The notes under the pieces were generated by a model, which worked only from the letters and a program-made list of their open reading frames with translations, was not told the origin of the DNA and did not search any database. Positions 41,611 through 52,344 of a DNA stretch of 64,000 bases are shown here, piece by piece. The number at the start of each line of letters is the position of its first letter. Positions within the stretch are counted from its first letter, which is position 1. Made by a program: the position numbers and the translations under genes. The DNA is from Actinomycetota bacterium (lineage in GTDB: Bacteria; Actinomycetota; Thermoleophilia; Solirubrobacterales; 70-9): the NCBI GenBank assembly GCA_018268675.1, contig JAFDWB010000074.1:1-64000 (forward strand), given 5' to 3'.

Positions 41611-42720
41611 TCAGATCGGGATGCGGGCGCCCAGTTGGAAGGCGGTCAGGGCCAGGAGGAGGACGACGAGGGGGCGGTCGCGGGCGACGGCGGCGAAGGG
41701 GAGGGGCCAGAGGAGGTACCAGGGCAGGAGCCAGGAGGTGGCGAGGAGGAGGCCGAAGCCGGCCCAGGCGGTGGCGCGGATCCAGTCGAAGCCGTGCCAG
41801 GTTCGGACCAGGAGCCAGAGGACCGCGGCGGCGAAGATGACGAGCGCGGCAGCCCGGGCGGCGCCTTGGTCGAGGCCGGAGATGCGGGCGAAGGTGGTCG
41901 GGATCGAGAGGTGGCTCGTCTTCCCCTGGTGCTCCCCGGCGAGTTCGAAGGCGCGCAGCCAGTCCCAGCCGAACGCGAGGTAGGCGCCGACGCCGATCGC
42001 GAGCGCCCCGCCCATCACTCCAGCCGCAAGCCGGTTGATGGGCCGAAAACCCGTCGTATAGGCGGGTTTTCGGCCCATCAACATTTGGTCCCGGAGGATG
42101 GCGAGGACGGCGAAGGGGGCGACGAAGAGGGTCGAGGACTTGATCGCGGCGCCGGCGAGGAGCGATGCGCCGGCGCTCGCCTCGCGGCGGACGACCAGGG
42201 CGGCGACGCCGAGGGTCGCGAGAAGCATCGCGAGGCCGTCGTTGTGGGCGCCGCCGACGACGTGGACGAGGACCAGGGGGTTGAGGGCGACGAAGGCGGC
42301 GGCGCGGGCCGGGTCGACGCCGCGCCACGCGGCGAGGCGCGCGACGACCCAGGCGAGGCCGAGCACCGAGATCGCCGCGACCGCCTTCAGGACCGCGACC
42401 GCGAGCCCTACCGGCAGCCACGCCAGCGGGTAGGTGAGGAGCGTGAACAGCGGGCCGTAGGCGCTCGCGGTATCGGTCCAGGTGACCTGGGCGAAGGCGG
42501 GGTCGCCGGGTGCGGCGGCGGGCGCGTGCACGTAGGGGTCGAGGCCGTGGCGCACCCCGAGGCGCGCGTAGTCGACGTAGCTGAAGACATCGTGGGAGAG
42601 GAGGACCGGGGCGCAGGCGAAGGCGACGACGGCGACCACGATCAGCGCGCCGACGAGCCGCCCGCCCAACCGCGGCGCCGTGGCGAGCACGCCGAGGTAG
42701 GCGAGGAACCCCGCCCACAT
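41611..42720 (-). CDS. GT87/DUF2029-like polyprenol-dependent mannosyltransferase, with repeat insertion
   Basis: 369 residues or slightly more, with ~10 membrane helices. Early Asp in VLLSHDVFSYVDYARLGVRH and the loop GLDPYVHAPAAAPGDPAFAQ with WTDTASAYGPLFTLL fit GT-C mannosyltransferases using polyprenol-phosphate sugars at the outer face. NPLVLVHVVGGAHNDGLAML is also typical. Residues ~213-229 (QMLMGRKPAYTTGFRPIN) are encoded by a palindromic repeat inserted in frame in a cytoplasmic or inter-helix position. The frame is open upstream of ATG 42720, so the true start may be earlier. Confidence 0.8.
   Translation of the reverse strand: MWAGFLAYLGVLATAPRLGGRLVGALIVVAVVAFACAPVLLSHDVFSYVDYARLGVRHGLDPYVHAPAAAPGDPAFAQVTWTDTASAYGPLFTLLTYPLAWLPVGLAVAVLKAVAAISVLGLAWVVARLAAWRGVDPARAAAFVALNPLVLVHVVGGAHNDGLAMLLATLGVAALVVRREASAGASLLAGAAIKSSTLFVAPFAVLAILRDQMLMGRKPAYTTGFRPINRLAAGVMGGALAIGVGAYLAFGWDWLRAFELAGEHQGKTSHLSIPTTFARISGLDQGAARAAALVIFAAAVLWLLVRTWHGFDWIRATAWAGFGLLLATSWLLPWYLLWPLPFAAVARDRPLVVLLLALTAFQLGARIPI
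42034..42082. repeat. 49-bp dispersed palindrome, intragenic copy
   Basis: Arms GTTGATGGGCCGAAAAC (42034-42050) and GTTTTCGGCCCATCAAC (42066-42082) are exact reverse complements. Three more base pairs (CCG/CGG) extend the stem to 20 bp around a 9-nt loop TCGTATAGG. The same arms and the TATAGG loop core recur at 51190-51239, and both copies are followed by ATTT. Here the repeat is translated in frame within the GT87-like gene without stopping it. Confidence 0.9.
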
Positions 42721-42801
42721 CAGGCCATAGGCGATCCCCGCGTCGATGCGCCCGCTACCCGTCGCTCGCCTGTGGGGCCGCGCCCGCGCGGGCGGCGCGG
42801 C

Positions 42802-44967
42802 TCATTCGCCCGCTTCCTTGCCCGCGCCGACGCCCGGCTTGGGCCCGCCGTACTTCGGCGGCAGCGGCGGCGGCAGCGGGGCCGGTTCCTGGCCCACGCC
42901 CGGGGCGTAGGCGTTCGGGTTGTAGCCGCCGACCGCGCCCTGGCCGGGCAGTGGTTCTTCGCCCGCGCCACCGCCGGTCCCACCGCCGCCGTGGCCTTTC
43001 TTCAGCTTCGCCGCCTCGGTCCCCGGCGCGGGCGCGGTGAAGCGCCCGTACCCCGGGCCCCATTCGATCTGTTCCGTCGGTTCGTGGAATTCGTCGCAGC
43101 GGACGCCCGCGTCGGCGTAGAGGGAGTGCCAGATTTCCGCCGGGAAGGTGCCGCCGAAGACGGTGATCCCGTTGACGTCGGTCATCGAGATCGCGTTCGA
43201 TTCCGGATAGCCGACCCAGACCGCGGTGGCGAGGTTCGGCTGGTACCCCGAGAACCAGGCATCGGTGTATTCGTCGGTGGTCCCGGTCTTGCCCGCCTGC
43301 CCGACGCAGCCGGTGTAGGCGGCGGTGCCGGTCCCTTCGGTGATGTTGTCGCGCAGCAGGCGCGTCACCTGCCAGGCGACCGCCGGGCTCAGCACCCGCG
43401 TCGGCTGCGGGCCCTGTGGGTGGTCGACCTTGCCGCCGGGGAAGACGACCTTGGCGATCGCCACCGGCCGGTGGCGCACCCCGCCCGAGGCGAGCGTCGC
43501 GTAGGCGTCGCTCAGTTCGAGCGGGCTGACCCCGTACTTGAGCCCGCCGATCCCTTCCGCCGGCAGCCCCTGCAGGTGCGTGGTGATCCCCATCGACTTC
43601 GCCGTCGCGGCGACGTTCTGCGGCCCGACATCGAGGTCGAGCTGCGCGAACACGGTGTTGTCGGAGGTGACCGTCGCCTGCTTCAGGTTGATCGTCCCCT
43701 GGTACCCCAGGTCGGCGGTGTGGACTTCCCAGTGTCCCCACTGCGGCAGGTTCAGGTTGAGCGGCTTCGATTCGTAGTAGGTGGTGTAGGGGTCGATGCC
43801 CTGCTTGATCGCGGTGGTGAGGACGAAGGCCTTGAAGGTCGAGCCGGGCTGCCGGTGTCCCTGGGCCGCCAGGTTGAACTGGTTCTGCGCGTAGGAGGTG
43901 CTGTTCACCATCGCCCGGATGTCACCGTTGCGGGGGTCGATCGACACCAGCGCCGCGGCCGGGTCGGTCGAGTACGGCAGCGCCGCGCGCATCGCCGCCC
44001 GCCCGACCCGCTGCAGCTCCGGGCTCAGCGTGGTGTGGACCTGGAGCCCGCCGTCCCTCACCTCGGCGGCGCCGTAGTGCTGGATCAGCAGGTGTTCGAC
44101 ATAGTCGAAGAAGTAGGGCTCGCGGTGGGCGAAGTAGCCGCGGCGGGAAGGACTCAGTCCCAGACCCCGCGCTTCGAGCGCCCGCGCCCGCCGCGGCGCC
44201 AGGAAGCCGAGCGACGCCATCTTCTGCAGCACCTCGTCGCGCCGCGCCTTCGCCGCGCGGGGGTTGAGCAGAGGGTTGTATTCGGAGGGCGCCTGGGGGA
44301 GCCCGGCGAGCAGCGCCATCTGGCCGACGTCGAGCTTCCACACCGGCCGCGAGAAGTAGATCTGCGACGCCGCCCCGACCCCCACCGCGGTCGCCCCTTC
44401 GACGGTCCCGTAGGTCGCCGTGTTCAGGTACTGACCGAGGATCTGGTTCTTCGAGTGGTGTTCGGAGTACTCGAGCGCCAGCTTCGCTTCCTCGATCTTC
44501 CGTTCGAGCGTCTTCTGCGGGTGGGCGATGCAGAGGCTGCGGACCAGCTGCTGGGTGATCGTCGAGCCGCCCTCGACCGCTTCGCCCGCTTCCAGGTCGG
44601 TGACCGCGGCGCGCAGGATGCCGAGCGTGTCGAGCCCGCCGTGCTGGTAGAAGCGCTGGTCCTCGATCGCCACCGTCGCCAGCTCGAGCTTGCGCGGCAG
44701 CTTCGCCGCCGGCACCGGTTCGCTCGCTTCCGGCGAGGCGATCGCCCCCAGCCGCTCCCCGTTGGCCGCCCAGATCACCGAGTTGCCGTGCCGCTGCGCG
44801 TGCTCGCAGCTGGCGAGCGAGGGCGCGTCGGCGGCGACGTTCAGCACCCAGCTGGTGACGCCGATCACGGCGACCGCGACCAGCGCGACGACCACCCCGG
44901 CGGCGATCGCCACCTTGCCGCCCAGACTCCCGCGGCGCCGCTGCCGACGCCGACCCCGCTGCGTCAT
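42802..44967 (-). CDS. bifunctional penicillin-binding protein (class A PBP)
   Basis: 721 residues. A basic cytoplasmic start and one membrane helix (VAIAAGVVVALVAVAVIGVT) lead to a GT51 transglycosylase domain: ATVAIEDQRFYQHGGLDTLG, GGSTITQQLVRSL and KNQILGQYLNTATYG. The transpeptidase domain has SxxK in QPGSTFKAFVLTTA, SDN in TVTSDNTVFAQLDLD and KTGT in GQAGKTGTTDEYTDAWFSGY. A Gly/Pro-rich tail ends the protein. It polymerises and crosslinks peptidoglycan outside the membrane and lies upstream of the mannosyltransferase on the same strand. Confidence 0.95.
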   Translation of the reverse strand: MTQRGRRRQRRRGSLGGKVAIAAGVVVALVAVAVIGVTSWVLNVAADAPSLASCEHAQRHGNSVIWAANGERLGAIASPEASEPVPAAKLPRKLELATVAIEDQRFYQHGGLDTLGILRAAVTDLEAGEAVEGGSTITQQLVRSLCIAHPQKTLERKIEEAKLALEYSEHHSKNQILGQYLNTATYGTVEGATAVGVGAASQIYFSRPVWKLDVGQMALLAGLPQAPSEYNPLLNPRAAKARRDEVLQKMASLGFLAPRRARALEARGLGLSPSRRGYFAHREPYFFDYVEHLLIQHYGAAEVRDGGLQVHTTLSPELQRVGRAAMRAALPYSTDPAAALVSIDPRNGDIRAMVNSTSYAQNQFNLAAQGHRQPGSTFKAFVLTTAIKQGIDPYTTYYESKPLNLNLPQWGHWEVHTADLGYQGTINLKQATVTSDNTVFAQLDLDVGPQNVAATAKSMGITTHLQGLPAEGIGGLKYGVSPLELSDAYATLASGGVRHRPVAIAKVVFPGGKVDHPQGPQPTRVLSPAVAWQVTRLLRDNITEGTGTAAYTGCVGQAGKTGTTDEYTDAWFSGYQPNLATAVWVGYPESNAISMTDVNGITVFGGTFPAEIWHSLYADAGVRCDEFHEPTEQIEWGPGYGRFTAPAPGTEAAKLKKGHGGGGTGGGAGEEPLPGQGAVGGYNPNAYAPGVGQEPAPLPPPLPPKYGGPKPGVGAGKEAGE

Positions 44968-44990
44968 GTCCGCAGCCTAAGCGACCGTCG

Positions 44991-45416
44991 CTAAGCGGTC
45001 GTGTCGGTCCCCGAATGGTTGTGGACGATCCCCTGGACCAACAGCTGGTTGGGGATGACGAAGCGGCTGCCGTCGCCGGGGTCGATGAAGGTGTAGGAGA
45101 GCGTGATGTCGGAGACGCGGCCCTCGCGTTCTTCGAAGTCGACCCGGTCGCCGATCCTGATCGGCTGGGTGATCGCGATCAGCACCCCGGCGATCACGTT
45201 GGCGATCGTGTTCTGGGCGGCGAAGCCGATGATCAGGCCGAGCACCGCGGTCGAGGCGAAGATCCCCGCCGCGAGCTTGCCCAGCGAGGTGAACTGGGCG
45301 AGCACGATCGCCGCCACCACCAGCACCGCGGCAAGCACCAGCACCCGCCGCAGGATCGTCAGCCGGGTCCTGGTCGAGCGGGATACCTGTGAGACTGCGC
45401 GATCCATGCAGGCCAA
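44991..45416 (-). CDS. MscS-type mechanosensitive channel, short form
   Basis: 141 residues. Two hydrophobic segments (RVLVLAAVLVVAAIVLAQF and GLIIGFAAQNTIANVIAGVL, the pore-lining type helix) precede the beta domain IGDRVDFEEREGRVSDITLS with FVIPNQLLVQGIV. Full MscS is about 280 residues, so the sensor helices and the C-terminal alpha/beta domain are reduced. Starts ATG 45416 and ATG 45407 are possible. The latter overlaps the ATG of the divergent protease gene on the shared CATG at 45405-45408, leaving no separate promoter space. Confidence 0.82.
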   Translation of the reverse strand: MACMDRAVSQVSRSTRTRLTILRRVLVLAAVLVVAAIVLAQFTSLGKLAAGIFASTAVLGLIIGFAAQNTIANVIAGVLIAITQPIRIGDRVDFEEREGRVSDITLSYTFIDPGDGSRFVIPNQLLVQGIVHNHSGTDTTA

Positions 45417-46944
45417 CCTAGTCGGCGGTGAAGTCGCAAAACCGGAGCCGAAGTTCCCCTACGCGAACTGGGGGCCGTGGGCGGCGATCCTGGGCGTCTT
45501 CGCGGCGCTCGCGATCGGCCTCTTCCTCTCCGTCCCGGCCCTGCTCGTGGGCAGCCAGGAAGGCAAGATCGAAGCGCTCTTCCCGCCGGCCTACACGAGC
45601 GGCGCGAGCTTCGACCACGGCGACAGCACGGCGATCGCCGTCGACGACCTCACCAACCGCCTCTTCGCCGACCACGAAGAAGAAGTGCGCGTCTTCGGCG
45701 CTCGCGGCCAGGAAATCGGCGCCGACGCGATCACCGGGATCGAAGAATCGCAGGGCCTCGCGTTCGACCCCCTGCGGCGCACGCTGTTCGTGGCCGAAAA
45801 GGGACCGGGCCGGATCGTCTCCTACGCGATCGGGCGGGAGGAGCCGCGCAAGATCGGCGCGGTGGAAGCGAAGGAACTGCCGCCGAACCTGCGCGGCTTC
45901 GAACCCGAAAGCCTCGCCACCGCGCCCGGCGTCCTCGGCTTCTACGCGATCGACGCCGCCGACGGCGCGGTGCTCGTCTTCGACGGCAAAGGCGAATACC
46001 GACGCCGGCTCGAAGTGCCCGGCTCGACGTCCCCGCGCACCTTCGAATTGGGCTCGGAAGACAACGGGATCGCCGTCGACACCTCCCCCGGGCCGGGGCG
46101 CGGCGACGTGTATGTCCTCTCCGGCAAGGGCGACGGCACGGTCTGGGCCTTCGGGCCGAACGGGCGCTTCCTCTGGGAGCTGACCCCTGAATCGGGGGAC
46201 GAATTCGCCGCCCTCACCGTCGACTCCCGCGGCGTCCTGTGGATCGCCGAACCGGACGGCGACACCTTCGGGTACAAGACATCGGGGGGCGCCGGGGCCG
46301 CGCCGGAACTGACCGGCGCCGAGATCAAGGTCGGCTCTCGGCCGAGCTCGCTCGAGTTCGCCGGCTCCGGCCACCTCTTCGTCGCCCGCGAACTCGACGG
46401 CACGCTCACCACCCTCGGCAGCATCATCTCCCAGGTCGCCACCGAGCTGGGCTTCCTGCTGGTGCCGCTGGCGCTCGCCTCGATGTTCGGCGCCAGGGGC
46501 CGGGAGATGCTCGAGCGGCTCGGCTTCCGCCGCTTCAAGGCATCGGCGTTCGGCTGGATGGCGCTCGCCTTCGTCCTCTACCTCGCCTTCACCGTCTTCT
46601 ACTCGGTGGTGATCACCGAACCGAGGCAGAAGGACATCGCCGAAAGCTTCGGCCCGACCGTCGTCCAGGTCCTCCTGATCGTGATCGCGGCGCCGATCGC
46701 CGAGGAGACGTGCTTCCGCGGCATGCTCTTCGGCGGGCTGCGGGAGAAGCTGCCGCGGCTGGCGGCGGCGCTGGTCACCGGGGTGATCTTCGGCGGCCTG
46801 CACGCGCTGACCGGGGTGAGCGCGGTGCCGCCGCTGATCGTCTTCGGCTTCATCCTGGCGCTGCTCTACGAGCGCACCGGCTCGATCCTGCCGGGCATCT
46901 TGCTGCACATGCTGAACAACTCGATCGCCCTGCTCGGGCAGTAG
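45406..46944 (+). CDS. CPBP/Abi intramembrane protease with inserted beta-propeller
   Basis: 512 residues. The protein starts like a CPBP protease (FPYANWGPWAAILGVFAALA, helix 1, residues ~20-48). Residues ~55-345 are then a repeat-rich beta-propeller of NHL/SMP-30 type: STAIAVDDLTNRLFADHEEE, QGLAFDPLRRTLFVAEKGPG, ESLATAPGVLGFYAIDAADG, NGIAVDTS, AALTVDSRGVLWIAEPDGDT and SSLEFAGSGHLFVARELDGT. The protease continues with ATELGFLLVPLALASMFGAR. Its three motifs are present: EE-x3-R in AEETCFRGMLFG, F-x3-H in FGGLHALTG and H-x3-N in LLHMLNNS. The propeller lies in the first extramembrane loop. Confidence 0.86.
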   Translation: MQANLVGGEVAKPEPKFPYANWGPWAAILGVFAALAIGLFLSVPALLVGSQEGKIEALFPPAYTSGASFDHGDSTAIAVDDLTNRLFADHEEEVRVFGARGQEIGADAITGIEESQGLAFDPLRRTLFVAEKGPGRIVSYAIGREEPRKIGAVEAKELPPNLRGFEPESLATAPGVLGFYAIDAADGAVLVFDGKGEYRRRLEVPGSTSPRTFELGSEDNGIAVDTSPGPGRGDVYVLSGKGDGTVWAFGPNGRFLWELTPESGDEFAALTVDSRGVLWIAEPDGDTFGYKTSGGAGAAPELTGAEIKVGSRPSSLEFAGSGHLFVARELDGTLTTLGSIISQVATELGFLLVPLALASMFGARGREMLERLGFRRFKASAFGWMALAFVLYLAFTVFYSVVITEPRQKDIAESFGPTVVQVLLIVIAAPIAEETCFRGMLFGGLREKLPRLAAALVTGVIFGGLHALTGVSAVPPLIVFGFILALLYERTGSILPGILLHMLNNSIALLGQ

Positions 46945-46954
46945 GATTCCGCCC

Positions 46955-47914
46955 GTGATCCGCCGCCTCGCCCTCACCGTCGGAGCCGCCGCGCTCCTGG
47001 CGGCGCCCACCACCGCCGCGGCCGCCGCGCCGCCGCCCAAGCCCGCGGTGCCGAAGGCGACCGTCACGGTCGAAGTCGGCGGCCTCGAAGGCGGCAAGGC
47101 GACGATCCTCGACACGGTGCCGGTCACCGGGACGCTGAAGCCCTTCGTCCCCGGGCAGCGGGTCGAAGTGACCTTCTACCGCAACGGCCAGGAAGTGGTG
47201 AGCCACAAGATCGCCGTGCAGCCGGGCGCGGAAGAAACCGGGACCTTCGAATCGAGCGTGGTGATGCGGGAAGGCGGCAAGTACGCGGTGTCGGCCAAGC
47301 ACGCGGCGACCGCCACGCTCGGCGCCGACTCCACCGTGCGCAAGAGCTGGACGGTCAGCTTCCCGCAGCTGAACCCGGGCGAATGCAACGAAGTGGTGGG
47401 GGTGTTCAAGTCCCACCTTGCGAAGATGGGGTACGTCAGCGGCGGCGGCAAGTGCTTCACCGCGCGGCTCGGGCGCGAGGTGCTCGCCTACCGCAAAGTC
47501 AACGGCATGGCGCGCACCCAGAAGGCCGGCGCGGGGCTGGTCAGGCTGGCTTTCGAAGGCAAGGGCGGCTACCACGTCAAGTACCCGAACGCGGGCGAAC
47601 ACGCCGAGGTGCCGCTCGCCCTCCAGGTGCTGGTGCTGGTGAAACAGGGCAAGCCGTTCGCGATCTACCCGGTGTCGACCGGCAAGCCCTCGACCCCGAC
47701 GATCACCGGTCACTACCAGTTCTACCGCCAGGAACCGGGCTACAACTCGGAGGGGATGTACTACAGCTTCTACTGGTACAACGGGTACGCCGTCCACGGC
47801 TACGCCGAAGTGCCGAACTACGCCGCGAGCCATGGCTGCGTGCGCACCTTCATCGCCGACCAGCCGCGGATCTACGAACAGCTGCACTTCGGCGAGTCCA
47901 TCTACGTGTTCTGA
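46955..47914 (+). CDS. L,D-transpeptidase (YkuD domain), exported
   Basis: 319 residues. The signal peptide MIRRLALTVGAAALLAAPTT ends near TAAAAA. A beta-sandwich Ig-like domain (~38-135) and a small helical peptidoglycan-binding-like region (~140-190) follow. The YkuD catalytic motif is YAVHGYAEVPNYAASHGCVR with the nucleophilic Cys at ~298. It would form 3-3 crosslinks or attach proteins to peptidoglycan. It starts 10 nt after the CPBP protease, so the two are probably co-transcribed. It complements the class A PBP nearby. Confidence 0.92.
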   Translation: MIRRLALTVGAAALLAAPTTAAAAAPPPKPAVPKATVTVEVGGLEGGKATILDTVPVTGTLKPFVPGQRVEVTFYRNGQEVVSHKIAVQPGAEETGTFESSVVMREGGKYAVSAKHAATATLGADSTVRKSWTVSFPQLNPGECNEVVGVFKSHLAKMGYVSGGGKCFTARLGREVLAYRKVNGMARTQKAGAGLVRLAFEGKGGYHVKYPNAGEHAEVPLALQVLVLVKQGKPFAIYPVSTGKPSTPTITGHYQFYRQEPGYNSEGMYYSFYWYNGYAVHGYAEVPNYAASHGCVRTFIADQPRIYEQLHFGESIYVF

Positions 47915-47949
47915 GGGTGTTCCTTGATCTGCTTGGTCACACGCCCTCA
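47912..47949. terminator. stem-loop after the L,D-transpeptidase gene
   Basis: TGAGGGTGT (47912-47920, containing the stop codon) can pair with ACGCCCTCA (47941-47949), with one mismatch. It would weaken transcription before pyrE. There is no U-tract. Confidence 0.35.
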
Positions 47950-47957
47950 GGCCGCCC

Positions 47958-48524
47958 GTGGCTGATCTTGAGGCCGCCAAGCGCACCCTGCTCGGGGAGC
48001 TGCGCGAGCACTCGCTGGTGATCGGTGAGGTGACGCTGGCGAGCGGGGCGGTCGCCCAGTACTACGTCGACGCGCGACGGGCGCTGATGCGCCCGGTGGG
48101 CTTCCGGGCGGCGGGCGAGCTGATCGCGGCGGCTGCGCACGAGCTCGGCGCGACGGCGGTCGGCGGGCCGGCGACGGCGGCGATCCCGCCCGCCTGCGCG
48201 CCGCTCGCGGTCGCCGGCGGCGAGGACCTGGTCGCCTTCTTCGTCCGCGGCGAGCGCAAGGAGCACGGGCTGCAGCGCTGGGTCGAGGGGCCGGTCGAGC
48301 CGGGTGCCCGGTGCCTGGTGGTCGAGGACACGGTGACGACCGGCGGCTCGACCGCGAAGGCGATCGAGCGTTGCCGCGAGGAGGGCCTCGAGGTCACCGG
48401 TGTGGTCGCCGTGGTGGACCGGCTGGCGGGCGGGGCGGAGCGGATCGAAGCCGCCGCCGAGGCTCCCTACCGGGCGCTGGTCACCATCGACGAGATCTAC
48501 CCGGAGCGGCCCGACCGCGCCTAG
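47958..48524 (+). CDS. pyrE: orotate phosphoribosyltransferase
   Basis: 188 residues. HSLVIGEVTLASGAVAQYYV is the orotate-binding start (usually G.F.LsSGr.s.yYiD.r). The PRPP motif is CLVVEDTVTTGGSTAKAIER, and VGGPATAAIPPACA contributes the phosphate loop. It makes OMP from orotate and PRPP in pyrimidine synthesis. Other pyr genes are not adjacent. The usual ALK/RKe loop appears as VRGERKEHG. Confidence 0.93.
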   Translation: MADLEAAKRTLLGELREHSLVIGEVTLASGAVAQYYVDARRALMRPVGFRAAGELIAAAAHELGATAVGGPATAAIPPACAPLAVAGGEDLVAFFVRGERKEHGLQRWVEGPVEPGARCLVVEDTVTTGGSTAKAIERCREEGLEVTGVVAVVDRLAGGAERIEAAAEAPYRALVTIDEIYPERPDRA

Positions 48525-48545
48525 GGCAAGGCGGCGAGGAGAGCG

Positions 48546-49181
48546 ATGCCGAGCGAGCCCGACGCCGTCGAGATCCGCGTCGTCGCCTGCCTGGTCGAGA
48601 AGCAGCGGACGACGCCGGACGTCTACCCGCTGTCGCTGAACGCCCTGCGCCTCGCCTGCAACCAGTCGACCAACCGCGACCCGGTGGTCGACTACGACGA
48701 GCCGACGGTCTCCGACGCCCTGCGGCGGACGGCGCTGCGCGGCTGGACGCGGCTGACGAGCGGCGCCGGCTCGCGGGCGCGCAAGTATCGCCACCTGCTG
48801 CCCGAGGCGCTCGGCGTCGACGGCGGCGAGCTGGCGCTGCTCGCGGTGCTGATGCTGCGCGGCGCCCAGACGCCGGGCGAGCTGAAGCAGCGGACCGAGC
48901 GGATGGAGGGGTTCGCCGACCTCGCCGCCGTCGGCGAGGCGCTCGACCGGCTGATCGAGCGCGGCTACGTCGTCCGCCACCGGCGCCGCCCGGGCCAGAA
49001 GGAGGAGCGCTACGAGCAGGTGCTGGGCGGGGAGGCGAGCGCCGAGGAGTTCCTCAGCGTCGCCGACTCCCCGACCCCCGCCGAGGCCGCCGACGAAGTC
49101 ACCCGTCTCGACCGCCTCGAAGGCGAACTGCTGGAGCTGAAGGGCGAGATCGCGCGCCTGCGCGAGGCGCTCGGCGAGTAG
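48546..49181 (+). CDS. YceH-family protein (DUF480)
   Basis: 211 residues in two winged-helix domains. The family opening is VRVVACLVEKQRTTPDVYPL-like (here IRVVACLVEKQRTTPDVYPL), then SLNALRLACNQSTNRDPVVD. The second domain has ALLAVLMLRGAQTPGELKQR. It ends in a Glu/Leu-rich coiled coil (LDRLEGELLELKGEIARLRE). The family is widespread and of unproven function. It lies 21 nt downstream of pyrE and is probably co-transcribed. Confidence 0.92.
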   Translation: MPSEPDAVEIRVVACLVEKQRTTPDVYPLSLNALRLACNQSTNRDPVVDYDEPTVSDALRRTALRGWTRLTSGAGSRARKYRHLLPEALGVDGGELALLAVLMLRGAQTPGELKQRTERMEGFADLAAVGEALDRLIERGYVVRHRRRPGQKEERYEQVLGGEASAEEFLSVADSPTPAEAADEVTRLDRLEGELLELKGEIARLREALGE

Positions 49182-49203
49182 TAGTCCTCGGGCGGGCCGG
49201 TCG

Positions 49204-51012
49204 CTACCCGCGCGGCGCGGAGGATTCGAGCGGCAGGCCGGCGCCGCGGCTCCCGCCGGGGATCGCGGCGATGACCTGGGCGCGAAGCTTGCCGCGTTCG
49301 CGCAGGAGTTGGCGCGCGCCGGTGGTCAACGGCACGTAGAAGGTGTGCCACTGGCCGCCGGTGAGGAGGAAGGTCCGCGAGCCGAGCGAGCGGGTGACGG
49401 TGCGGACGAGCGGGCTGCGGTGCCGGCGCGGCGTCGTCACCCTGATGCTGGTGCGCAGGCCGAGGTGCCCGGGGCAGGCGGTGCCGACCGGCCACTGGCA
49501 GGCGAGCGTGACCTTGACCCCGTTGCGCATCGCCTTCAGGCGGGAGAAGGTGACCGCGACCGGGATCGTCGTCGTCTTGCAGCCGAGCAGGCGGTCGCCG
49601 CCGAGCGCCACGTTGAGCGCGTAGACGCAGACCGGCTGGCGACCGGACTTGAGCGTGACGATGTTGGTGTCGAACCCATGCGCCGGGCCGGCGACGATGT
49701 GGGACGCGGCGACGTCGGGGCGGGAGAGGTTCGCGATCGCCCCCAGTTCGTAGGTTTCGACGCCTTCCTGGCCTTCGCGGCCGCCGACGAGGACCTTGAT
49801 CGAGAGCGCTTCGGTGGGCGCGCTCGGGTCGAGGGCCCAGCCTTTGACCCGCACCTGCCCGGCCGCCGGCGACCCGGTCAGTTCGAGCGAGCCGATCGGG
49901 TCGTCGACGCCGACCGCGGGCGTGCCGTTGCCGACCGTCGCCCCGTCGATGTAATTGCTGTCGATGTTGATCGTGGCGCCGCCCCAGGTCTCGTTGTGGC
50001 CGCCGCGGAACTGGTGGATCCGCTGGTGGTTGGCCCAGGCGCCGGCGGGCACGACGGCGTCTTCGGTGTTTTCGAGGTTGTTCCAGTTGGCGATCCAGAT
50101 GTCGTCGGGGAGGACGGCGCCGGTGCCGATCTGGGCGGCGAGGTCGGCGATCCCGGAGCCGCTGGAGGAATAGACGCCCGACTGGTAGCCGAGCTGGTGG
50201 AGCTTTTCCGTCCAGGCGGCGAGGAAGGTGAGCACGGCCTTGGTCGCGCTGGTGGTCCGCGTGTAGGACTCCATGTCGAAGTAGATCGGGCTGCCCGGCC
50301 CGATCCCGATCGCGGCGGCGTGGCTGACCGCGTCTTCGGCCGCCGCCGTCCCTTGGGTCGCCGCGGTCAGCGTGGACATCTTGGCGCAGCTGCTGCAGCT
50401 CGAGGTGGTCGCCTGGAGGCCGACGTAGGTTGGGATCAGGTGCCAGCCCGCGGCGGTCTCGGCGCTCACCCAGGCGGCGGTGAGGTTGGGTTGGGAGCAG
50501 GCGCTGTTTTCGCCGCCGATGTAGATGCCGACGCCGCGGAAGGGCGATTCGGCCCAGGCCGCCAGCGCCTTGGTGGAGGGGGCGCTGCAGGTGTCGAAGC
50601 CGAGGCCGGTGAAGACGGAGCCCGCGGCCGAGCCGGTGGCGGGCGCGACACTGGCGCGGGCGGTGGCCCGGCGCTGGACGCGCGACCGGGCGGCGGCGCG
50701 CTGGTGGTGGGGGGTGACGACGATCGCCTGGCGCCTGCCGAGGAGCGGGCCGGCCGGGCACCGCTGTTCCTTCGAGGGGGCGCCGAGGTAGACGACGCGG
50801 CGGTCGAGCCGCACGCAGGTGTGCGAGCCCGGCGCCACCCGGACGACCCCGAACCCGGCCGGGACATGCACGGCGCGCCCGGCGAAGTGAACGGTGCGGG
50901 CGCCGGTCCCGGCGGCCGAGGCCGACCCGACCGCCGCGGCGAGCGCTACGAGCAGCACGAGGCCGCCGAACAGAAGCCGGGCGGGAAGGCGCTTGCCGGG
51001 TCCGGAGGTCAC
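49204..51012 (-). CDS. secreted DUF1906 (glycoside-hydrolase-like) protein
   Basis: 602 residues from GTG 51012. The signal peptide is LLFGGLVLLVALAAAVGSAS. A basic Ala-rich linker leads to the DUF1906 TIM-barrel-like domain (~145-370). Landmarks are GLGFDTCSAPSTKALAAW, GVGIYIGGENSACS, HLIPTYVGLQA, SPIYFDMESYTR with acidic residues of the putative active site, and LGYQSGVYSSSGSGI. The C-terminal ~230 residues form beta-rich domains. Relatives such as Rv2525c are thought to act on cell-wall glycans. Frames before 51012 run into the repeat region and lack a signal peptide, so are rejected. Confidence 0.85.
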   Translation of the reverse strand: MTSGPGKRLPARLLFGGLVLLVALAAAVGSASAAGTGARTVHFAGRAVHVPAGFGVVRVAPGSHTCVRLDRRVVYLGAPSKEQRCPAGPLLGRRQAIVVTPHHQRAAARSRVQRRATARASVAPATGSAAGSVFTGLGFDTCSAPSTKALAAWAESPFRGVGIYIGGENSACSQPNLTAAWVSAETAAGWHLIPTYVGLQATTSSCSSCAKMSTLTAATQGTAAAEDAVSHAAAIGIGPGSPIYFDMESYTRTTSATKAVLTFLAAWTEKLHQLGYQSGVYSSSGSGIADLAAQIGTGAVLPDDIWIANWNNLENTEDAVVPAGAWANHQRIHQFRGGHNETWGGATINIDSNYIDGATVGNGTPAVGVDDPIGSLELTGSPAAGQVRVKGWALDPSAPTEALSIKVLVGGREGQEGVETYELGAIANLSRPDVAASHIVAGPAHGFDTNIVTLKSGRQPVCVYALNVALGGDRLLGCKTTTIPVAVTFSRLKAMRNGVKVTLACQWPVGTACPGHLGLRTSIRVTTPRRHRSPLVRTVTRSLGSRTFLLTGGQWHTFYVPLTTGARQLLRERGKLRAQVIAAIPGGSRGAGLPLESSAPRG

Positions 51013-51104
51013 AGGCCTCAGGGGATTAAACGGGTCGGAGGCCCAGAAGTTGCTGCGTTGCCATGACCGGCAAGCGTGCTTGCCGCCTTCCGGAGGCGCC
51101 CGAG

Positions 51105-51272
51105 GGAGTCCCGCCACAGAGATGCCAAGGGACGGTGCGCGTCCCGCCGACACCTGCGCGCACCCCGTGCGCCTTCCTGGGTCCGGGAGGTTGATGGGCC
51201 GAAAACCTGCCCTATAGGAGGTGTTTTCGGCCCATCAACATTTAGGGGCCCACGGGAGTGTGTCGGGACTCC
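51105..51272. repeat. inverted-repeat-bounded spacer between DUF1906 and DyP genes
   Basis: GGAGTCCCGCCACA (51105-51118) and TGTGTCGGGACTCC (51259-51272) are inverted copies with one mismatch, enclosing about 140 bp. The 50-bp palindrome lies inside. No gene is visible in 51013-51303. GGCAAGCGTGCTTGCC at about 51069-51084 is a further short hairpin. It may be the footprint of a small mobile element. Confidence 0.5.
51190..51239. repeat. 50-bp dispersed palindrome, intergenic copy
   Basis: Arms GTTGATGGGCCGAAAAC (51190-51206) and GTTTTCGGCCCATCAAC (51223-51239) are identical to those of the copy at 42034-42082. The 16-nt centre includes CTATAGG, where the other copy has GTATAGG, and ATTT follows in both. 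The two copies therefore share one ancestor, with changes confined to the loop. Confidence 0.9.
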
Positions 51273-51303: not shown

Positions 51304-51339
51304 TCAGCCGGCGCCGATGCCGCCGATGCCGAGGGAGCC
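51304..51339 (-). other. encapsulin targeting peptide coding segment
   Basis: This segment encodes the C-terminal GSLGIGGIGAG and the stop of the DyP peroxidase. Known cargo tags carry a hydrophobic LGIGSL-like core at the extreme C-terminus after a flexible linker, as here. The Ser-Leu of the usual GSL is replaced by Gly-Ile. Confidence 0.7.
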
Positions 51340-52344
51340 TTCGGGGGCGGCCGGGGGGTCGTCGGGATCGGGCTGGTCGTCGACGTCGGGCTCGGCCGGG
51401 GCGGGGGCTTCCGGGCCGGGTGGGTCGTCGAGGAAGTCGGCGCTGGGGACGAAGTAGAGATTGCCGGTGGTGGCGGTGGAGAAGTCGAGGATGCGGTCGT
51501 GGGTCGCCTCGCCCTTGCCGAGGAACATGTTGTCGAGCATCTGCTCGGTCACCGCGGGGGTGGCGGCGTAGGCCACGTAGTAGGTGCCGAACTCGTTGCC
51601 GCCGACGCGGCCGAAGGGCATGTTGAAGCGCATGATCTGAAGCTGTTCGCCCTCCTCGTCTTCGATCACGTTGAGGGTGAGGTGGGCGTCCGGGGCCTTG
51701 TCCTCGTCGGCGAACTCGACGTCGTCGAGCTTGGTGCGGCCGAACGCCGCCTCCTGTTCCTCGACGGTCAGGACGTTCCAGCCGGCGAGGTCGTGGAGGT
51801 ACTTCTGCACGATCAGGTAGCTGCCACCGGCGAAGTCGGGCTCCTCGTCGCCGATCACGACCGCCGCCTCGGCGGCGCGCCCCTCCGGGTTCTCGGTGCC
51901 GTCGACGAAGCCGAGCAGGTCGCGCTCGTCGAAGGACTTGAAGCCGTGGATCTCCTCGACGATCCGCACTCCGGGGTGGAGCCGGTCGACGATCAGGTGG
52001 GCAAGCTCGAAGCACATGTCGAGGCGTTCGGCACGGAGGTGGAAGAAGAGGTCGCCGGGGGTGGCGGGCGCCGTGTGGACGGGACCGCGCAGTTCGCGGA
52101 ACGGGTGAAGCCCGGCCGGTCGCGGGGCGCCGAACAGGCGGTCCCAGAGCTCTGCCCCGATCCCCACCACGCTGCTGAGCCGCGCCTCCTGGTACCGGAA
52201 GCCGACCGAGCGCCGCAGGCCCGCCAGATCCGGCAACAGGTCGAGGACCGCCGCCTCGCCACCGGGATCGACGCAGGCGGTGAGGAAGATGGCGTCCTCG
52301 GTGAGCGGCGTGAGGATGTCCTGCGGCTCCGCTTCGGGCATCAC
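51304..52344 (-). CDS. DyP-type haem peroxidase with encapsulin-type cargo tail
   Basis: 346 residues. GFVDGTENPEGRAAEAAVVI contains the DyP GxxDG motif with the distal Asp. QIMRFNMPFGRVGGNEFGTY contributes the conserved Arg and the R-x-N-MPFG segment. ATHDRILDFSTATTGNLYFV is the C-terminal haem-side region. The last ~35 residues form an acidic, Pro-rich linker ending APEGSLGIGGIGAG. This matches the SLGIGSL-type signal that loads cargo into encapsulin shells. The enzyme oxidises dyes, lignin-like phenols or haem with peroxide. No encapsulin gene is adjacent. Confidence 0.9.
   Translation of the reverse strand: MMPEAEPQDILTPLTEDAIFLTACVDPGGEAAVLDLLPDLAGLRRSVGFRYQEARLSSVVGIGAELWDRLFGAPRPAGLHPFRELRGPVHTAPATPGDLFFHLRAERLDMCFELAHLIVDRLHPGVRIVEEIHGFKSFDERDLLGFVDGTENPEGRAAEAAVVIGDEEPDFAGGSYLIVQKYLHDLAGWNVLTVEEQEAAFGRTKLDDVEFADEDKAPDAHLTLNVIEDEEGEQLQIMRFNMPFGRVGGNEFGTYYVAYAATPAVTEQMLDNMFLGKGEATHDRILDFSTATTGNLYFVPSADFLDDPPGPEAPAPAEPDVDDQPDPDDPPAAPEGSLGIGGIGAG

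What the first reader, a model, noticed from the sequence alone, without database searches (positions are those of the whole stretch)
42034..51239. A 49-50 bp palindromic repeat occurs twice, once translated in frame inside a membrane glycosyltransferase
Copies at 42034-42082 and 51190-51239 share both 17-bp arms exactly, a TATAGG loop core and the following ATTT. The first sits inside the GT87-like gene and adds about 17 residues (QMLMGRKPAYTTGFRPIN) without breaking the frame; the second is intergenic. This is what is expected of a small mobile or amplified palindromic element that tolerates coding insertion, like Rickettsia palindromic elements. I know of no named family of this kind in this lineage. 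Mobility is inference; the identity of the copies is seen.
Basis: partly seen in the sequence, partly recalled or inferred. Interest (0 to 1): 0.8.

Follow-up and report, generated by a model that had tools for sequence, protein, structure and literature searches.

The report
Gene-invading DNA hairpins in soil bacteria
Soil bacteria of one genus carry dozens of copies of a roughly 49-letter DNA hairpin that sits at gene ends and even inside working genes, where it is translated into protein; its outer letters stay fixed across species while its centre is repeatedly overwritten to match the other copies in the same genome.

Summary
The arm occurs 98 times in the window's own genome (reversed control 0). 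61 hairpins were read there and 161 in all over six congeners (Solirubrobacterales MAGs). Each is a 48-50 bp palindrome: a near-invariant arm, GTYGAYGGGCCGAAAA, around a variable but self-complementary centre. Copies lie after genes: convergent gaps 63 (35 expected), divergent gaps 3 (29 expected). They often supply the stop codon, and 26/161 are read inside genes, among them DnaE2, NuoG, PurQ, LeuRS, PabAB, TsaD and GT87. Outgroup orthologues lack the peptide, so these are insertions. The best reading is a REP/RPE-like palindromic repeat family, not reported from Actinomycetota in the literature I could search, with no GTAG/CGTC tag and no Y1 transposase. The surprise is at orthologous sites: arms are kept, yet centres match other copies in the same genome (mean 4.3 differences) far better than the same site in other species (9.9; permutation p=0.0002). 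Old insertions therefore seem to be rewritten from other copies. Mobility and its enzyme remain inferred; no precise empty site or target duplication could be shown.

The parts
42034..42082 (.). hairpin element copy 1 (49 bp), inside the GT87-like gene; arms 42034-42050 and 42066-42082, centre CCGTCGTATAGGCGG
   Evidence: member of a family of about 60 copies; covariance-model match E about 1e-16
41611..42720 (-). GT87-like membrane glycosyltransferase gene that carries copy 1 in frame (inserted peptide QMLMGRKPAYTTGFRPIN)
   Evidence: Pfam PF09594 E=3e-10. The peptide is present in G000, G003, G006, G008 and G011, absent from G007, G002, G009 and others. AlphaFold2 places it between helices 194-213 and 225-264
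51190..51239 (.). hairpin element copy 2 (50 bp), intergenic; arms 51190-51206 and 51223-51239, centre CTGCCCTATAGGAGGT
   Evidence: 64 nt from the 3' end of the gene 51304-52344 (-) and 177 nt upstream of the gene 49204-51012 (-). The orthologous gene in G003 also has a copy 143 nt past its 3' end
51304..52344 (-). gene whose 3' end lies next to copy 2
   Evidence: gene call by codon usage; ORF

Best explanation
The two palindromes belong to a dispersed family of REP/RPE-like DNA hairpins that spread in one clade of Solirubrobacterales. The unit is a 48-50 bp hairpin: a 16-17 bp arm GTYGAYGGGCCGAAAA(C) that is almost invariant, and a variable inner stem-loop. Many intergenic copies lie inside a longer repeat of roughly 100 bp. 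New copies survive where they do little harm: past gene ends, in convergent gaps, and in frame in surface or linker loops of proteins (two of the three frames are open; the third supplies a TGA stop). SHOWN: the copy number, the insertions relative to outgroup orthologues, the gene-end bias, the conserved arms, the covarying centres, and that centres at old shared sites match other copies in the same genome, not the same site in sister species. INFERRED: that the element is parasitic or neutral at DNA level, and that old copies are overwritten by copies from elsewhere in the genome, either by ectopic gene conversion across the invariant arms after hairpin breakage or by re-insertion into an existing copy. 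The enzyme is unknown.
For: Copy number: 98 arm hits in the own genome, 0 in the reversed control. Six congeners, which form one clade, carry many copies: the covariance model finds 43 or more each (capped at about 60), while genus g9 has 6-10 diverged copies per genome and most other genomes none. The perfect form is in 4 of 399 genomes of the class, all in this genus. Hairpin: 91.9% of cells pair; 152 two-sided changes against 74.5 in shuffles and at most 53 in slid controls. Insertions: PurQ, NuoG, DnaE2 and GT87 have species with and without the peptide, and G008 DnaE2 keeps a remnant (GATGTTGATGGGC then host sequence). Context: convergent 63 vs 35.2 expected, divergent 3 vs 29.1, p about 1e-10; 22 gene ends use the TGA in the arm. 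DNA-level rather than mRNA-level: arm codons stay TTT, GTT, CAT, CAA, AAA in nearly all 17 copies of that frame although the host uses TTT for 1.8% of Phe and GTT for 1.0% of Val; G.U and A.C mismatches on the transcribed strand are 13 vs 24; orientation to genes is 43 vs 34. Rewriting: same species, different site 4.34 differences; same site, different species 9.94; permutation p=0.0002. Imperfect centres such as CCGGACTATCTGACGGG recur exactly at PurQ and NuoG in G000 and at DnaE2 in G007. Shared left-flank residues (RLPHDPR, CLSSHPA, RLDHD, RLPNPD) at the DnaE2 site argue for one ancestral insertion.
Against: No transposase was found, and no precise empty site or target-site duplication: net size differences at genic sites vary from 11 to 22 codons. 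All comparisons are between species at 71-86% protein identity, so no recent hop is seen. Genes were called with a home-made codon-usage caller. The permutation test uses 14 sites, not all of equal age. The near-invariance of the arms could also reflect selection for an unknown function.
Confidence: 0.66

Rival explanations
1. A functional 3'-end element, such as a bidirectional transcription terminator or mRNA-end stabiliser, kept by selection.
For: Strong bias to convergent gaps and gene ends, near absence from divergent gaps; very stable hairpin, -32 to -41 kcal/mol; GTTTT follows the inner stem.
Against: 26 of 161 copies sit inside genes, including essential ones, where a strong terminator would be harmful. 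The T run is only four bases and lies within the stem. There is no preference for G.U over A.C on the transcribed strand (13 vs 24). A terminator does not need 16 invariant bases. Only a small part of genes carry it, and the related small-genome species do without.
Confidence: 0.15
2. A binding site for a dimeric chromosome-organising or regulatory protein.
For: Symmetric, near-invariant arms conserved across species in coding and non-coding copies; strand-neutral behaviour.
Against: Presence at a given site is patchy within the clade (NuoG, PurQ, GT87). Several unrelated but self-complementary centres coexist in one genome, which fits a hairpin better than one recognition sequence. Location follows harmlessness (gene ends, loops), not promoters or a chromosomal domain.
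Confidence: 0.08
3. A MITE mobilised in trans by an ordinary DDE insertion sequence whose ends match the arms or the roughly 100-bp outer repeat.
For: Inverted-repeat ends; about 100-bp longer repeats at many intergenic copies (flank partner found for 51/74 vs 6/74 controls in G000 and 25/28 vs 0/28 in G003).
Against: No arm occurs at the end of a longer element: nearly every arm has its partner about 29 nt away. No target-site duplication was seen; the flanks extend the palindrome instead. No transposase lies between neighbouring copies. IS copies can be lost at contig breaks in these MAGs.
Confidence: 0.2
4. Shared genic sites are insertion hotspots hit independently in each species by its own active subfamily; no rewriting takes place.
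For: Would by itself give identical arms and species-specific centres; PurQ of the outgroup G010 has a diverged copy at the same turn.
Against: At DnaE2 the left-flank residues are homologous in G003, G006, G008 and G011, and G008 holds a deletion remnant. At GT87 the left flank (RDS, ACTCGATG) is shared. The occupied species form one clade. No common target sequence was seen at the empty sites.
Confidence: 0.25

Closest known systems
Rickettsia palindromic elements (RPE; reviewed in PMC10969869)
   Same: Palindromic repeats inserted in frame in many unrelated housekeeping genes and in intergenic DNA, with a conserved translated peptide; no known transposase.
   Different: RPEs are about 150 bp in that review, in ten families, in Rickettsia. 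Here the core is 49 bp, in Actinomycetota, with near-invariant arms and a centre that turns over in concert within a species. Two frames are used (VDGPKT..FSAHQ and MLMGRK..FRPIN).
CGTC-tagged REPs, including RPE-4 and RPE-6 (PMC3733652)
   Same: Short palindromes without a dedicated transposase, mostly within 20 bp of gene 3' ends in convergent gaps, some inside DNA replication and repair genes.
   Different: Those have a CGTC tag at one end, 8-9 bp stems, 4-5 base loops and CCA tails, and were reported from five other phyla. Here there is no tag on the core, a stem of about 22 bp, and symmetric ends.
GTAG-tagged REPs and RAYT transposases (PMC2817692, PMC3733652)
   Same: Dispersed palindromes after genes; the end of the repeat often supplies a stop codon (TAG there, TGA here).
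   Different: No GTAG end, and no Y1/RAYT transposase in 12 congeners.
MITEs
   Same: Small non-coding repeats with inverted ends and no gene of their own.
   Different: No target-site duplication and no cognate IS found.

Membership tests
Rickettsia palindromic elements | palindromic repeat inserted in frame in unrelated genes | tested here: met
   26 of 161 copies lie within called genes; empty orthologues for PurQ, NuoG, DnaE2 and GT87
Rickettsia palindromic elements | RPE sequence family and a unit of about 150 bp | tested here: not met
   core of 48-50 bp; longer repeat about 100 bp. No RPE sequence was compared directly
GTAG REP | GTAG at one end | tested here: not met
   ends are GTYGAY on both sides
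GTAG REP | RAYT (Y1 transposase) in the genome | tested here: not met
   PF01797: 0 of 12 congeners, while 5 of 14 control genomes ring
CGTC REP | CGTC at one end, stem 8-9 bp, loop 4-5 bases | tested here: not met
   the core has no tag and a stem of about 22 bp. CGTCAC occurs at the outer edge of some long-type copies in G003, so a distant link is not excluded
CGTC REP | no dedicated transposase; location at gene 3' ends | tested here: met
MITE | target-site duplication | tested here: inconclusive
   no direct repeats at the core ends; no close strain pair to define an empty site
MITE | autonomous relative with the same ends | tested here: inconclusive
   none between neighbouring copies and no unpaired arms, but the genomes are MAGs in many contigs
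intrinsic terminator | terminates transcription | not testable with these tools
   needs RNA-seq or a reporter

The most novel reading that the evidence does not exclude
The invariant arms act as recombination or homing sites and the centre as an exchangeable cassette: an unknown machinery copies a donor hairpin into existing copies, so that the whole genomic set is rewritten in concert while its genic positions are inherited. This would be a copy-templated overwriting system for 49-bp palindromes.
Probability: 0.22. Interest if true: 0.85.

Novelty: new variant of a known kind. Interest (0 to 1): 0.64.

Why it matters
In-frame palindromic elements in housekeeping genes have been treated as mainly a Rickettsia oddity. 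Here a free-living, GC-rich actinobacterial clade does the same in DnaE2, NuoG, PurQ, LeuRS, PabAB, TsaD and GT87, with a clear phylogeny of empty and filled sites. The concerted overwriting of centres at inherited sites makes an old question testable: how repeats of this kind, which lack a transposase, are maintained and spread. It also means that annotated proteins in this lineage carry about 17 residues of repeat-derived peptide that should not be read as conserved domains.

Tried and rejected
RAYT/Y1 transposase: none in the genus. Rfam: no match in the window. Terminator or mRNA-structure selection: strand tests neutral. A transposase between neighbouring copies: only ordinary genes. Outer arms as an independent target palindrome: the outer motif does occur without the core, but in other repeat families, so the outer arms are described only as a longer repeat around many copies. 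Phage carriage: one IMG/VR contig carries a copy, but in host DNA at a provirus edge. Ogata et al. 2002 is not held in the library.
Full report
OBSERVATION. They share both 17-bp arms, TATAGG and the following ATTT. Copy 1 is 49 bp and in frame in a GT87-like gene on the minus strand (Pfam PF09594); copy 2 is 50 bp and intergenic. The window lies in a 4.2-Mb genome of 95 contigs. Named relatives found with the GT87 protein are Solirubrobacterales and other Thermoleophilia MAGs such as Solirubrobacterales bacterium 70-9 and RYN_247.

FAMILY. The 14-nt arm GATGGGCCGAAAAC occurs 48 times forward and 50 times reverse in the own genome, and never in the reversed control. Nearly all hits are inverted pairs about 29 nt apart. 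I fetched loci around copies in six congeners and read 161 hairpins: 61 in the own genome G000, 44 in G006, 32 in G003, 12 in G008, 6 in G007 and 6 in G011. These are samples of each genome, not totals. Arm positions 7-12 (GGGCCG) are unchanged in 158-161 of 161 copies; only positions 3 and 6 vary freely, between T and C. The centre of usually 17 nt varies but stays self-complementary: 91.9% of cells pair, with 152 two-sided changes against 74.5 in shuffles and at most 53 in slid controls. In other genera and outgroups the arms differ too, with matching changes on both sides (for example GGGCCTAAAAC..GTTTTAGGCCC in G019 and GCCGA..TCGGC in G010).

DISTRIBUTION. The six high-copy genomes are one clade in a five-protein tree and have larger genomes (3.8-4.7 Mb) than most congeners. 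The perfect form is in 4 of 399 sampled genomes of the class, all of this genus.

LOCATION. With genes called by a codon-usage caller trained on these loci (its limits apply to all counts here), 63 copies lie in convergent gaps (35.2 expected by intergenic length), 62 in co-directional gaps (63.8) and 3 in divergent gaps (29.1), p about 1e-10. In 22 cases the neighbouring gene's stop codon is the TGA inside the arm. 26 copies are inside genes: 17 in the frame VDGPKT..FSAHQ, 7 in the frame LMGRK..FRPIN, and 2 in the third frame, where the TGA is mutated. Host genes include error-prone DNA polymerase, NuoG, PurQ, LeuRS, PabAB, TsaD and a hydantoinase. In the GT87-like protein an AlphaFold2 model (mean pLDDT 79) puts the peptide in the loop between two long helices, a stretch of lower confidence.

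INSERTION. Orthologue searches in 12 congeners show species with and without the peptide. GT87: present in G000, G003, G006, G008, G011; absent in G007 and outgroups, though G004 has a diverged palindrome there. NuoG: present in G000, G006, G011; absent in G003 and outgroups; G007 and G008 had no orthologue. PurQ: present in G000, G006, G011 and in diverged form in G010; absent elsewhere. DnaE2: present in G000, G003, G006, G007 and one of two G011 copies; G008 keeps a remnant, GATGTTGATGGGC, then host sequence. Net gains vary (NuoG 11-18 codons, PurQ 12-22), so the boundaries are not precise. 49 is not a multiple of three, so each in-frame copy must also have had a compensating indel or have entered as a longer unit. 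G006 PurQ and G003 DnaE2 do carry flanking sequence resembling the outer repeat (by eye).

LONGER UNIT. Copies more than about 20 nt from gene ends often share flanks with other copies: 51 of 74 flanks against 6 of 74 controls in G000, 25 of 28 against 0 of 28 in G003. Some of these flanks are mutually complementary, though pairing beyond the core is modest. The core alone is the common denominator of genic and gene-end copies.

DNA, NOT mRNA. On the transcribed strand, mismatched arm pairs are 13 G.U and 24 A.C; selection on mRNA pairing should favour G.U. Orientation by the asymmetric centre is 43 sense and 34 antisense. In 17 coding copies of one frame the arm codons are GTT, AAA, TTT, CAT, CAA in nearly all, although the host uses TTT for 1.8% of Phe, GTT for 1.0% of Val and CAA for 5.4% of Gln. 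The arms are held, or restored, at DNA level.

REWRITING. At 14 orthologous sites occupied in two to five species, centres of the same species at different sites differ by 4.34 on average, and centres at the same site in different species by 9.94; shuffling centres among species within sites gives p=0.0002. G011 has GCGCTGATATAGAGCGC (in one orientation or the other) at PurQ, NuoG and DnaE2 and nearly the same at GT87; G006 has CTC(A/C)AG-type centres at all of its sites; G000 has the imperfect CCGGACTATCTGACGGG at both PurQ and NuoG. Exact recurrence of imperfect centres speaks for copying rather than convergence. Shared left-flank residues at DnaE2 and GT87, the G008 remnant and the tree speak for ancestral insertions. 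I infer ectopic gene conversion, or re-insertion into existing copies. Independent insertion at hotspots remains the main rival to this part.

RELATION TO KNOWN THINGS. It works like Rickettsia palindromic elements and like CGTC-tagged REPs, which also lack a dedicated transposase, sit within 20 bp of gene 3' ends and enter DNA repair genes (PMC10969869; PMC3733652). It is not a member by sequence: no GTAG or CGTC tag on the core, a much longer stem, symmetric ends, and no Y1 transposase in the genus. Full-text searches for such elements in Solirubrobacterales or Thermoleophilia, and for concerted evolution of REPs, found nothing relevant; that library is partial.

VERDICT. A real, lineage-restricted, gene-invading palindromic repeat family; a new variant of the REP/RPE kind. 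Its concerted rewriting at inherited genic sites is the unusual part. Mobility, the enzyme and the exact insertion unit are not shown.

Noticed in passing
L031-L087 and L173-L203 (loci of G000 and G006): Other palindromic repeat families occur in the same genomes, with arms such as GGGCGCCTCATGGCGC and GCTGTTCCTTATGGTCC (about 16 copies each in the G006 loci) and TGAGTTGA. Some share a CGTCACACTTCC head with the flanks of the long-type hairpins.
   Followed up: partly
L323:37-81 (IMGVR_UViG_3300044692_000144): One viral contig carries a copy at its edge, in what looks like host DNA next to two tRNA-like stretches and an integrase gene, i.e. a provirus boundary rather than phage cargo.
   Followed up: partly
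L119 and L147 (G004), GT87 gene: G004, which has almost no copies of this family, has a different palindrome at the same GT87 position, GTCGACGGGCCT..AGACCCGTCAAC, possibly a diverged member.
   Followed up: no
L299 and L295 (G011): G011 has two DnaE2-type genes, one with and one without the hairpin peptide.
   Followed up: no
L174:7594 (G006) and L224:8246 (G003): Two genic copies are read in the third frame, opened by mutation of the TGA in the arm; they may be decaying copies or gene-call errors.
   Followed up: no
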